A stretch of 64,000 nt of DNA from Microcystis elabens FACHB-917 (GTDB lineage Bacteria > Cyanobacteriota > Cyanobacteriia > PCC-6307 > Cyanobiaceae), in NCBI RefSeq assembly GCF_014698445.1, contig NZ_JACJSZ010000011.1:1-64000 (forward strand), written 5' to 3'. Shown here in pieces: positions 48,207 to 55,385 of this stretch. Position 1 is the stretch's first letter. Each line of letters begins with the position of its first letter. The translations under genes and the position numbers were made by a program. The notes beneath the pieces were generated by a model. That model had not been told where the DNA came from and made no database searches. It saw only the letters and a list, made by a program, of their open reading frames with translations.

Positions 48207-48725
48207 ATGTTCGACGCCTTCACCAAGCTCGTCGCCCAGGCCGACGCCCGCGGCGAATTCCTCAGCCCCGGCCAGATCGATGCCCTGGGAGCGATGGTGG
48301 CCGAGAGCAACAAGCGGATGGACACGGTCAACCGCATCACCTCGAACGCCTCCAAAATCGTCACCAACGCCGCCCGCGACCTGTTCGATCAGCAGCCCGC
48401 CCTGATCGCTCCCGGAGGCAACGCCTACACCCATCGCCGCATGGCTGCCTGCCTGCGTGACATGGAGATCGTCCTGCGCTATGTCACTTACGCGATCTTC
48501 ACCGGCGACGCCTCCGTGCTGGAGGACCGCTGCCTCAACGGTCTCCGCGAGACCTATCTGGCCCTCGGGGTGCCGGGTGCTTCGGTGGCCGAGGGGATCC
48601 GCAAGATGAAGGACGCCGCCATCGCGATCGCCAACGACCGCAACGGCATCACTCCCGGCGACTGCTCCGCCCTGATGTCCGAGGTGGGCACCTATTTCGA
48701 TCGCGCCGCGGCCGCCGTCGCCTGA
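48207..48725 (+). CDS. cpcB: Phycocyanin beta subunit
   Basis: A 172-residue CpcB with both bilin-attachment cysteines, Cys82 ([10 protein letters not shown]) and Cys153 (PGDCSAL), and the methylatable Asn72 (GGNAYTHRR). It should pair with CpcA in phycobilisome rods, but no cpcA, linker or lyase gene lies beside it: the next gene is an Amt fragment and a terminator follows at once. Elsewhere cpcB nearly always heads a cpcBA operon. A second full operon may exist outside the window. Confidence 0.96.
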
Positions 48726-48775: not shown

Positions 48776-48880
48776 TGACCGTTCGCTGGCCGGAAGGCTT
48801 GTTTGTGTGATTCGCTACACAGCCATCCTTTCCCTGCATTGAAGGTGATTTCTGACTTTGCCTAGGTGTCCGACCCTCCG

Positions 48881-49486
48881 ATGTCAGGATTCCCGACAGA
48901 TGAAGCGCCGTCTGCTGCGCCGTCGTCCACACGGACGGCCTATGAGCGCCTGCTCCGCCACACGCCGGCTGGTCTTCCGCCTCAGCGGGTCATGGATGGC
49001 AGCCGCAGGGCCGTGGAGTCCGCCACCGGTACCGTCGCCGGCTCGGTGGCCGTCACCCCGGCGACACGGCTCCTGGATGGGGAGCAATCGCCCCCGATCG
49101 ACATGCTCTCGGCGGCAACCTGCTCGCTTGTGGTGCATATCGCGGCGCCCATTCCGTTCGACGACGGCCTCGGCACCCTCATGCATCCCGGTGGGGGCGG
49201 GATGGTGGGAGCGCTACCGACGGGGAGTCTCGTTCCCAAGCCCCTTGTGCCCGGAGATTACTTCCCCATGTCGACCAAGATCCTTGAGGAATCAGGACAC
49301 TTCGGCCTGATCATCGCCAAGATCAATACCTTTTTCCCCCCCTATGGATATGCGGCGCTGGGCACCGCTATCATGCGATTGATTCTCGGTGCCCTGATGC
49401 CTCCGCGCGTCAGCATCGAAGAGCAAGAGCGCGGTCTCGACTTCGTTTCTCACGGGGAAGAGACGTACGACCCAATGACCAACTGA
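48881..49486 (+). pseudogene. C-terminal remnant of an Amt ammonium transporter
   Basis: A 201-residue frame (a GTG five codons upstream is possible). From about residue 35 it aligns by eye with the last third of Amt proteins: TGTVAGSVAVTPA, the FDDGLGTLMHPGGGG stretch matching the D-D-x-L and H-G-x-G-G of Amt, GALPTG, and the cytosolic tail RVSIEEQERGLDFVSHGEE. The first six or so helices are missing, and remaining helices are interrupted by Pro and charged residues, so transport is not expected. The P-II gene follows 14 bases later, the classic amt-glnB order. Whether the short protein is made is unknown. Confidence 0.7.
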
Positions 49487-49500
49487 CGACCAAACCTTCC

Positions 49501-49839
49501 ATGAAAATGATCACGGCCATGGTCCGCCCCTCCAAGGTGGATGCCATCAAGACTGCCCTCGTCGCCCTCGACATCATCGGCATGACGGTCACCGACTCCC
49601 GTGGATTCGGTCGCCAGAAGGGCCAGGTCGAGCGTTACCGCGGAACGGAGTTCACCGTCGAATTCCTTCCCAAGGCCAGGATCGAGGTCGTCGTCCCCAG
49701 CGCCAAGCTGGATGCAGCGATCGCCGCCATCACCGAGGCGGCCCACACCGGCGAGATCGGCGACGGCAAGCTCTTCGTCACCCCGGTGGAGTCGGTGATC
49801 CGGATCCGCACCGGCGAATCCGGCGAATCCACCCTCTGA
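49501..49839 (+). CDS. glnB: P-II nitrogen regulatory protein (GlnB/GlnK type)
   Basis: A 112-residue P-II signal protein. T-loop: GFGRQKGQVERYRGTEF, B-loop TGEIGDGKLFV, C-loop IRIRTGE. P-II trimers sense ATP/ADP and 2-oxoglutarate and regulate targets such as NAGK, PipX or Amt. At the usual modification sites, position 49 is Thr (Ser is phosphorylated in Synechococcus) and position 51 is Phe (Tyr is uridylylated in enterics). It is preceded by an Amt remnant and may be a second P-II, with canonical glnB elsewhere. Confidence 0.93.
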   Translation: MKMITAMVRPSKVDAIKTALVALDIIGMTVTDSRGFGRQKGQVERYRGTEFTVEFLPKARIEVVVPSAKLDAAIAAITEAAHTGEIGDGKLFVTPVESVIRIRTGESGESTL

Positions 49840-53367: not shown

Positions 53368-55385
53368 CTGGGGCTGGTGATCGGCACGGCGCTCCCCCAG
53401 GGGCTGATGTCCTGTGGGGAGGGCAGGGCGGTATCGATCCACAGGCGCCAGGGGATGTCGCCCCCATCGGCGGGCGGCAACTGGAAGTCGAGACTCTCCC
53501 AGTAGGCGTTGGCGATGCAATGCAGCCGGAAGCTGTTGTCGTAACTCGTGATGCGAACGGCAAAGGAGCGGGAGGACTCCCCCCAGTCCGGTTCGTGGAG
53601 AGCAACGCCATGCCATTCGATGTGGCTCTTCAGCAACAGATCGTTGAGGCTCAGTTGCCGCTGACCGATGACGATGTCCCGCCGCATCCGGTGGGCGATC
53701 AATTCCTTCACGAAACGGTGCAGGGAGGCGTACCGTGCCGTCAGGCTCCAGTCAAACCAGCTGATCTCATTGTCCTGACCGTAGGGATTGTTGTTGCCCT
53801 GCTGGGAGCGACCTACTTCATCCCCCATGACGAGCATGGGGGTGCCGATGGCCAGAATCAGCAGAGTGAGGAAATTGCGGGTCTGCCGCTGGCGCAGCGC
53901 CAGCACCTCGGGGTTGCGGCTGGGTCCTTCCTCCCCGCAGTTCCAGCTGGCGTTGTCGTCGGCACCATCGCGATTCCCCTCGCCGTTGGCCTCGTTGTGC
54001 TTGCTGTTGTAGGCCACCAGATCGGCCAGGGTGAAGCCGTCGTGGCAGGTGACGAAGTTGACGCTCTGCTCCGCCTCCCGTTCCTCATGGCCATAGATGT
54101 CGGGACTGCCGAGCATCCGCAGGGCCGCCTTCGGCACCTGGCCGGGATCGCCCCGGAGGAAGCGGCGGATGTCATCGCGGAAGCGGCCGTTCCATTCCTG
54201 CCAGCTGTCGCCGATGAAGCTGCCCACCTGATAGAGGCCCGCCGCATCCCAGGCCTCCGCGATCAGCTTGGTGCCGACCAGACGGGGATCGGTCTCGATG
54301 TCCCACAGCACCGGAGGAAGCGGCGTGGGGCGGCCCTCCTCGTCGCGGGCCAGCACGGAGGCCAGATCGAAGCGGAACCCGTCGACGTGCATGTGCTTGA
54401 CCCAGTAGCGCAGGCTGTGGCGGATCAGCCGCCGAACGATCGGATGGTTGGCATTCAGCGTGTTGCCTGTGCCGCTGAAATTGGCATAGCGGCTTCGATC
54501 CGCCTCCAGGAGGTAGTAGGCCTCGTTGGCCAGACCCCGAAAACAGAAGCTGGGCCCGCGGTGGTCGCCTTCGGCGGTGTGATTGAACACCACATCGAGG
54601 ATGACCTCGATGCCGGCGCGGTGCAGCGCTTTCACCAGATCCCGGAACTCGTCGAGGGGTCCGAGCGGATCGGAGCGGGAGCTGTAGCCGGGGTGGGGGG
54701 CGAACAGGGAAATCGGCGAATAGCCCCAGTAGTTCGTCCTGCCGGGCGGGGCGTCCAGCGGATCGAACTGAAAGATCGGCAGCAGTTCCACCGCCGTGAT
54801 GCCCAGATCCTGAAGGTAGGGGATCTTCTCGATCAGGCCGGCATAGGTGCCGGCGCGCTCCGGTGCCACGCCGGAACTGGGGTGACGCGTGAAGCCGCGG
54901 ACATGGAGTTCGTACACCACGGTTTCCCGGCGGGGCCTGCGCAGGGGCCTGTCGTCCCCCCAGTCGTAGAGGCTGGGATCGGCCACAACGCTCTTCATCG
55001 CCGTCGCCAGATCGCCGGCACTGGAGCTCCCCTCCTGGCGGGCGTAGCCGGGGGGGGTGACCACCGCAAGGCCGTAGGGATCCAGGAGCAGATTGCGCCC
55101 GTCGAAGCGGAGCCCGCGCTCGGGCTGCCAAGGACCGTGCACCCGATACCCGTAGATCTGGCCAGGTCCCAGCCCCCGGATGTGGCCATGCCAGTAGTGG
55201 TAGGTACGGTGCCGCGCCGGATCCAGTTCGACGACGTCGCTTGGAAGGGCGGCGTTCACCCGATCGAAGAGCAGCAGTTCGACACGGGTTGCGAACTTGG
55301 AATAGACGCAGTAGTTCACCCCTTCCGGCGTCACCGTGGCGCCGAGGTGGGCACTGCTGCCCATGGAGATCTCCAACACCGTCAT
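53277..55385 (-). CDS. glgX: Isoamylase-type glycogen-debranching enzyme
   Basis: A 702-residue GH13 enzyme: CBM48-like N-terminal domain (residues 1-130), DVVFNHT, GFRFDLAS with nucleophile Asp, AEAWD with acid Glu, and TCHDGF. It hydrolyses alpha-1,6 branches of glycogen. A Met at codon 8 (MGSSAHLGA) may be the real start. With LDH close by, it fits glycogen use in dark fermentation. Confidence 0.93.
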   Translation of the reverse strand: MTVLEISMGSSAHLGATVTPEGVNYCVYSKFATRVELLLFDRVNAALPSDVVELDPARHRTYHYWHGHIRGLGPGQIYGYRVHGPWQPERGLRFDGRNLLLDPYGLAVVTPPGYARQEGSSSAGDLATAMKSVVADPSLYDWGDDRPLRRPRRETVVYELHVRGFTRHPSSGVAPERAGTYAGLIEKIPYLQDLGITAVELLPIFQFDPLDAPPGRTNYWGYSPISLFAPHPGYSSRSDPLGPLDEFRDLVKALHRAGIEVILDVVFNHTAEGDHRGPSFCFRGLANEAYYLLEADRSRYANFSGTGNTLNANHPIVRRLIRHSLRYWVKHMHVDGFRFDLASVLARDEEGRPTPLPPVLWDIETDPRLVGTKLIAEAWDAAGLYQVGSFIGDSWQEWNGRFRDDIRRFLRGDPGQVPKAALRMLGSPDIYGHEEREAEQSVNFVTCHDGFTLADLVAYNSKHNEANGEGNRDGADDNASWNCGEEGPSRNPEVLALRQRQTRNFLTLLILAIGTPMLVMGDEVGRSQQGNNNPYGQDNEISWFDWSLTARYASLHRFVKELIAHRMRRDIVIGQRQLSLNDLLLKSHIEWHGVALHEPDWGESSRSFAVRITSYDNSFRLHCIANAYWESLDFQLPPADGGDIPWRLWIDTALPSPQDISPWGSAVPITSPSYRVGARSVVVLFVLLSGGEAGAGTPVARS

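What the first reader, a model, noticed from the sequence alone, without database searches (positions are those of the whole stretch)
48881..49839. Degenerate Amt remnant kept in frame directly upstream of P-II
The frame retains Amt landmarks (VAVTPA, D-D-x-L-x-x-x-x-H-x-G-G-G, the E-x-x-x-G-L-D-x-x-x-H-G-E tail) but lacks the N-terminal six helices and has broken membrane segments. The classic amt-glnB order is preserved. Either this is a decaying gene, or a truncated protein that still presents the P-II-contacting tail has been kept as a P-II ligand.
Basis: partly seen in the sequence, partly recalled or inferred. Interest (0 to 1): 0.75.

Follow-up and report, generated by a model that had tools for sequence, protein, structure and literature searches.

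The report
Dead ammonium channel beside intact P-II
A picocyanobacterium carries a broken, freely drifting half of an ammonium-channel gene in front of a well-preserved nitrogen-sensor gene; relatives have the working channel or other broken versions of it, so this is mostly ordinary gene decay, with a small unexplained hint that the reading frame was spared.

Summary
48881-49486 (+) is the start and the last 164 codons of an ammonium transporter gene, amt2, joined in frame after a net 846-nt (282-codon) deletion, 14 nt upstream of an intact second P-II gene, glnB2 (49501-49839). It is best read as a pseudogene: the second pore-histidine column holds proline, hydropathy has collapsed, and dN/dS on the window's branch is about 0.7 (not distinguishable from 1; working copies 0.053) while glnB2 stays near 0.03. 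By my sorting of 42 genomes of the genus, 31 keep amt2 intact beside glnB2, 8 (this one included) have a broken amt2 beside an open glnB2, and 3 lack both. The seven broken relatives carry stops, frameshifts or lost frames, one with a stop inside the tail, which speaks against a conserved P-II-binding tail protein. What remains odd: no stop and no indel over 164 drifting codons (joint chance about 0.03-5% for one copy; 0.2-34% for at least one of eight), and a slower last ~77 nt before glnB2. I take these as luck plus constraint on the glnB2 leader. amt2 and glnB2 are in print; I saw no mention of the decay, but only one paper search used a word for it.

The parts
48805..48818 (+). GT-N9-TAC site (NtcA-box-like), putative operon promoter element
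   Evidence: Exactly one such site in a 260-nt upstream window in 26 of 26 amt2-glnB2 loci tested, intact or decayed (windows of the decayed loci were placed by hand from the alignments). G019 was left out of that list; tested later it has two such sites in 1600 nt, at -730 and -559. Mean chance per window 0.18 by mononucleotide shuffling; window hit. Consensus GTAN8TAC from PMC9430850, passage seen. No binding data.
48881..48978 (+). surviving start codon and leader codons of amt2
   Evidence: ATG at 48881 aligns with the ATG of intact amt2 in G005, G007, G017, G022
48978..48987 (+). junction of the internal in-frame deletion (net 846 nt, 282 codons)
   Evidence: 48912 to 48987 (75 nt) against 921 nt in G005; 201 codons against 483 in G005
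48992..49486 (+). last 164 codons and stop of amt2: degenerate C-terminal half, gap-free against intact relatives, no inner stop, pore-His column = Pro
49421..49500 (+). slower-evolving end of amt2 (last 21 codons, ending RGLDFVSHGEETYDPMTN), TGA at 49484-49486, 14-nt spacer
   Evidence: 4 window-unique substitutions in 77 nt (stop not counted) against 74 in the preceding 429 nt, Fisher p=0.0055; cut point chosen after seeing the data
49501..49839 (+). glnB2, intact second P-II protein (112 aa; Thr where the genome's other P-II has Ser49)
   Evidence: Pfam PF00543; 97-99% identical to five near intact relatives; window-branch dN/dS 0.029-0.033; comparison with the other P-II

Best explanation
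The locus is an amt2-glnB2 operon whose first gene has died. An internal deletion removed about codons 38-319 of the ammonium channel, and the rest drifted without constraint on the protein. The upstream region and the last bases before glnB2 were kept because glnB2, a second P-II sensor, is still needed. Another, intact Amt in the same genome probably made Amt2 dispensable, and glnB2 presumably serves that Amt or other targets. Shown: homology, deletion, loss of protein constraint, intact glnB2, intact second Amt, broken amt2 in seven other genomes. Inferred: the operon and promoter role of the GT-N9-TAC site, what glnB2 now binds, and that the open frame is luck or a by-product of operon translation (this last overlaps with the first rival).
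For: Codon ML: window-branch omega 0.695 against 0.053 background on 11 taxa (2dlnL 75.1; against 1: 1.43); repeated on 8 taxa with the tree: 0.728 against 0.053 (68.2; 1.16). glnB2 on the same branch 0.029 and 0.033. Window-unique changes fall 31/31/16 on codon positions, 66 of 78 nonsynonymous; the intact long branch G024 has 7 of 37. Pore-His column Pro, best hydropathy window 1.62 against 2.28-2.29. 31 of 42 genus genomes intact amt2, 8 broken, 3 no locus (my sorting); glnB2 open in all 39 with the locus. Another full Amt match in this genome and in 8 of 8 genomes with broken amt2. Upstream site in 26 of 26 loci tested.
Against: No stop and no indel in 164 drifting codons, and the big deletion is a multiple of three; the joint neutral chance without the deletion is 0.0003-0.05 for one copy and 0.002-0.34 for at least one of eight. 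The omega estimates lie under 1, and pairwise tests reject omega=1 (2dlnL 4.5-11.9), though pairwise values include the working history of both lineages. The last 77 nt change more slowly than the rest. Having another Amt is not significantly tied to broken amt2: 8 of 8 against 25 of 31 with any other Amt match (p=0.31) or 22 of 31 with a whole one (p=0.16). amt2 is over four times as long as glnB2, so more amt2 than glnB2 lesions is partly target size.
Confidence: 0.85

Rival explanations
1. The remnant is dead as a channel but its translation is still useful: ribosomes crossing it protect the operon transcript (no Rho-type polarity) or reinitiate at glnB2 14 nt after the stop, so stops and frameshifts are selected against while amino acids drift. 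This is compatible with, and partly overlaps, the best explanation.
For: Zero stops and indels over 164 codons and an in-frame deletion; slow last 77 nt in the window, and no mismatch (one indel) in the last 60 nt between G061 and G025 against 9-14 per 60 nt at -420 to -240.
Against: G061, G025, G027, G019 and G062 lost the frame or gained stops and still have open glnB2. Synonymous choice in the last 12 codons of 43 intact copies is not more constrained than elsewhere (p=0.33). G061 and G025 are also very alike inside glnB2 (5 mismatches in 336 nt), so the drop may be regional. The chance null is not excluded once eight copies are counted.
Confidence: 0.2
2. A truncated protein kept as a ligand of P-II, presenting the Amt tail.
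For: Tail with 2 nonsynonymous changes in 21 codons against 64 in the preceding 143; open frame.
Against: Tail frame or sequence broken in G025, G062 and G019, and in G061 not in frame with the apparent amt2 start. E. coli GlnK binds AmtB by T-loops in the pore (PMC4274968, passages). Pore half deleted and the rest degenerate.
Confidence: 0.04
3. Assembly or sequencing artefact at the junction.
For: One draft genome of 121 contigs; no second strain of the species seen.
Against: 78 window-unique substitutions spread over the 3' half cannot come from a joining error; flanks are collinear with relatives on both sides.
Confidence: 0.01

Closest known systems
amt2 and glnB2 of freshwater picocyanobacteria (PMC9361551, passages seen)
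   Same: The passage reports amt2 in 68/132 genomes (54/67 freshwater strains) and a second P-II copy, glnB2, in 12/67 freshwater and 3/17 brackish isolates; the window genes are probably these (cluster identity not checked).
   Different: The passages give presence and absence only; the word pseudogene does not occur in the main text searched. Here a second P-II beside amt2 or its remains is found in 39 of 42 genomes of the window's genus, a much higher share, which I cannot reconcile without their tables.
GlnK-AmtB pair
   Same: P-II gene beside an Amt gene; Amt tail recognisable; P-II intact.
   Different: Order amt-glnB rather than glnK-amtB, and the channel is dead.
Synechococcus WH5701 with two P-II-like and two PipX proteins (cited in PMC7344720, passage seen; original paper not seen)
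   Same: A picocyanobacterium with two P-II paralogs, GlnB-A and GlnB-B.
   Different: Whether GlnB-B is this glnB2, and the state of its amt neighbour, was not checked.
Synechocystis P-II-Amt1 interaction (PMC6603209, passages seen)
   Same: A cyanobacterial P-II binds an ammonium permease; a plausible present role for glnB2 without its own channel.
   Different: P-II with Ser49; the window P-II has Thr there.

Membership tests
Amt/Mep/Rh channel (working member) | sequence match to the Amt family | tested here: met
   PF00909 E=1.7e-13, profile 247-399
Amt/Mep/Rh channel (working member) | full-length subfamily score | tested here: not met
   TIGR00836 54.2 bits against cut-off 343.3
Amt/Mep/Rh channel (working member) | full set of membrane helices (eleven, recalled) | tested here: not met
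   282 codons deleted; hydropathy of the rest weak
Amt/Mep/Rh channel (working member) | twin pore histidines (recalled) | tested here: not met
   second His column is Pro; the first, by recalled AmtB numbering, lies in the deleted part
Pseudogene | loss of protein-level purifying selection | tested here: met
   window-branch omega 0.695 / 0.728, not different from 1, far from background
Pseudogene | stops or frameshifts | tested here: not met
   open over 201 codons, but an 846-nt internal deletion
P-II ligand protein | tail frame conserved among shortened copies | tested here: not met
   stop in G062, frameshift in G025, other frame in G061, altered in G019; tail frame open in G003, G011 and G027
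P-II ligand protein | binding to GlnB2 | not testable with these tools
   no experiment
P-II (glnB2) | P-II domain under purifying selection | tested here: met
   PF00543 E=1.8e-28; omega 0.029-0.033 on the window branch

The most novel reading that the evidence does not exclude
After losing its channel, the amt2 remnant is kept as a translated, sequence-tolerant leader: its open frame and its last ~80 bases are selected because they set glnB2 expression (translational coupling or anti-polarity), so a dead gene survives as a cis-regulatory reading frame for a P-II paralog that has changed partner.
Probability: 0.15. Interest if true: 0.55.

Novelty: new member of a known kind. Interest (0 to 1): 0.3.

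Why it matters
The window is one snapshot in a repeated natural experiment: in one genus the channel of an Amt/P-II pair breaks in several ways while the sensor stays nearly unchanged. That makes it testable what a second P-II does without its channel, and whether the ends of a dead leading gene are kept for the sake of the gene behind it. The remnant by itself is ordinary decay.

Tried and rejected
Stop-free frame as proof of function: rejected, since 10-41% of simulated neutral copies of 164 codons lack stops after 60-120 changes. Pairwise dN/dS of 0.45-0.59 as proof of constraint: rejected, because it averages over the working history; the branch models give 0.695 and 0.728. Conserved tail as a general cis element: not supported by synonymous choice in 43 intact copies (42 named loci plus G022; p=0.33; 9 of the 51 named loci tried fell out, 6 because no tail stop was recognised and 3 as short frames). 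PHROGs: one match (E=2.4e-09) to a family of unknown function, of no use. tRNA scan: none. Counting amt2 against glnB2 losses as a test: dropped, because amt2 is the longer target. No structure prediction was run, because an alignment-driven model would hardly respond to the substitutions. Paper searches; only one search used the word pseudogene. None of the listings named this remnant, but I saw only listings, and passages of six papers.

Data limits: the tree holds 10 of 15 genomes tried, because an end marker was not found in 5, and it joins the window to the others with support 0.90. The 11-taxon tree was set by hand and differs in the place of G011; one search repeats the test on the topology with the 8 taxa available. 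One search looked at 58 of the 80 named loci; 52 of the 58 showed amt2 sequence. The indel ratio uses four comparisons that share the window, and a hand-made coding mask; the 3' spacer, not counted in it, has 12 indels per 176 substitutions. The G011 frameshift could be a sequencing error (genome 85% complete). G025, G061 and G062 may share one event. The majority ancestor comes from four relatives.

Full report
WHAT IS THERE. The open frame 48866-49486 (+) has 206 codons from a GTG or 201 from the ATG at 48881. It matches the Amt family over the last 153 of 399 profile positions (PF00909, E=1.7e-13) and solved Amt sequences such as Mep2 5aex (E=4.9e-07) and 2b2f (E=8.7e-06). Fourteen bases after its TGA starts a P-II gene, 49501-49839. 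The genome holds another, full-length Amt match on a different contig and a second P-II.

RELATIVES. In most genomes of the genus the P-II gene is preceded by an intact Amt gene, which I call amt2 (483 codons from its native start in G005). In 42 intact named copies the stop lies 7-37 nt before the P-II start. Over the last ~164 codons the window protein is 59-60% identical to its nearest intact relatives, while the P-II proteins are 97-99% identical.

ANATOMY. The window keeps the native amt2 ATG at 48881 and about 33-37 leader codons; then net 846 nt (282 codons) are missing relative to G005, and the last 164 codons follow in frame. From there to glnB2 there is no indel against G005, G007 or G012; G017 and G022 lack one base in the spacer.

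SELECTION. A codon model on 11 taxa with a separate omega for the window branch gives 0.695 against 0.053 elsewhere; setting it equal to the others costs 75.1 in 2dlnL, setting it to 1 costs 1.43. That tree was set by hand; on the topology with 8 taxa the figures are 0.728, 0.053, 68.2 and 1.16. glnB2 gives 0.029 and 0.033 on the same branch, like its background. Window-unique changes fall 31/31/16 on codon positions 1/2/3, 66 of 78 nonsynonymous; the parsimony rule undercounts third positions. G024, an intact long branch, has 7 nonsynonymous of 37; the sister pairs G005/G007 and G017/G022 have only 2-4 unique changes each. Pairwise dS to four relatives is 0.39-0.55 in amt2, 0.36-0.73 in P-II, 0.25-0.63 in four flanking genes and 0.80-1.18 in cpcB. 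So the clock of the remnant is not unusual; protein constraint is gone. The second pore-His column is proline (CCC where the six relatives shown have CAC or CAT), and the best 19-residue hydropathy window falls from 2.28-2.29 to 1.62.

IS THE FRAME KEPT BEYOND CHANCE? Neutral simulation gives 29% or 21% without a stop for 78 or 111 changes (10-41% over a wider range). Noncoding alignments of the window to four relatives show 22 indels per 459 substitutions (not independent), and the G061-G025 remnants 4 per 92. With 0.03-0.08 indels per substitution, 75% of them frameshifting (an assumption), the joint chance of an open frame is 0.0003-0.05 for one copy, and 0.002-0.34 that at least one of eight broken copies looks so. 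Mildly surprising, not decisive; the deletion being a multiple of three adds a factor of about one third.

OTHER BROKEN COPIES. By my sorting of the rows for 42 genomes (own included), 31 have intact amt2, 8 a broken one (G000, G003, G011, G019, G025, G027, G061, G062) and 3 (G015, G018, G033) neither amt2 nor glnB2; G033 has other Amt fragments and a 47%-identical partial P-II match on one contig. G003 has a different deletion and a TAA; G011 a frameshift; G027 deletions and frameshifts; G019 a stop and an altered tail; G061 and G025 keep only about the last 52 and 64 codons; G062 has a stop inside the tail. That is about six lesion kinds; G025, G061 and G062 may share one. All 39 genomes with the locus have an open glnB2. 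All 8 with broken amt2 have another whole Amt match; of the 31 with intact amt2, 25 have another Amt match, 3 of these (G001, G016, G020) only in pieces (p=0.31, or 0.16 counting whole ones). Some genomes are incomplete.

WHAT SURVIVES AT THE ENDS. One GT-N9-TAC site lies upstream of the amt2 start in 26 of 26 loci tested, intact and broken (chance about 0.18 per window), at 48805-48818 here; in loci with full-length amt2 it stands 1536-1564 nt before glnB2. G019, left out of that list, has two sites in 1600 nt. The pattern itself is common: 23 hits in the 64-kb window against 14.5 expected; the weight lies in its constant place. It resembles the NtcA consensus GTAN8TAC (PMC9430850, passage). 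I saw no clear -10 box by eye. At the other end, the last 63 nt of the remnant plus the 14-nt spacer have 4 window-unique changes against 74 in the preceding 429 nt (p=0.0055; last 63 nt alone p=0.026; cut point chosen after seeing the data); the decline is not smooth, one window at -240 being low as well. Between G061 and G025 mismatches per 60 nt fall from 9-14 (-420 to -240) to 5, 3 and 0 towards glnB2, and the one indel there breaks the tail frame, which points to the nucleotides and not the peptide; but glnB2 itself differs by only 5 in 336 between them, so the drop may be regional. Against a general element: synonymous choice in the last 12 codons (9 informative) of 43 intact copies is not unusual (p=0.33).

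glnB2. It has Thr (20 of 27 copies printed, own included) or Asn (7 of 27) where the genome's other P-II has Ser49, so phosphorylation of that Ser is not to be expected. P-II of Synechocystis binds Amt1 (PMC6603209, passages), so glnB2 could serve the remaining Amt; this is inference.

VERDICT. A decayed amt2 in front of a living glnB2, one of eight broken copies found in the genus. The P-II-ligand reading is unlikely. A translated leader is possible but unproven. The gene pair and its patchy distribution are in print (PMC9361551, passages); in the paper searches I saw nothing on decay of amt2 beside glnB2, but only one search used a word for decay.

Noticed in passing
48207-48725 (+): A solitary cpcB-like phycobilisome gene with no cpcA beside it, upstream of the amt2 remnant; protein unchanged or nearly so (dN 0.000-0.002) against four relatives. 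The genome has two further phycobilisome gene pairs in tandem on contig C67 (cpcBA naming inferred).
   Followed up: partly
49501-49839 (+): glnB2 carries Thr or Asn at the place of Ser49 in all 27 copies printed, while the genome's other P-II keeps Ser.
   Followed up: partly
G000:C57: The other P-II gene of this genome lies on the same contig as several phycobilisome matches.
   Followed up: no
G029, G031, G035: These genomes of the genus show a third P-II-like match (that of G031 is a short weak one).
   Followed up: no
G004, G008, G010, G013, G014, G063: Six genomes have an intact amt2 but no other Amt match; some are incomplete.
   Followed up: no
55194-55207: GTAGTGGTAGGTAC fits the full NtcA consensus GTAN8TAC on both strands, inside an open reading frame; not examined further.
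   Followed up: no
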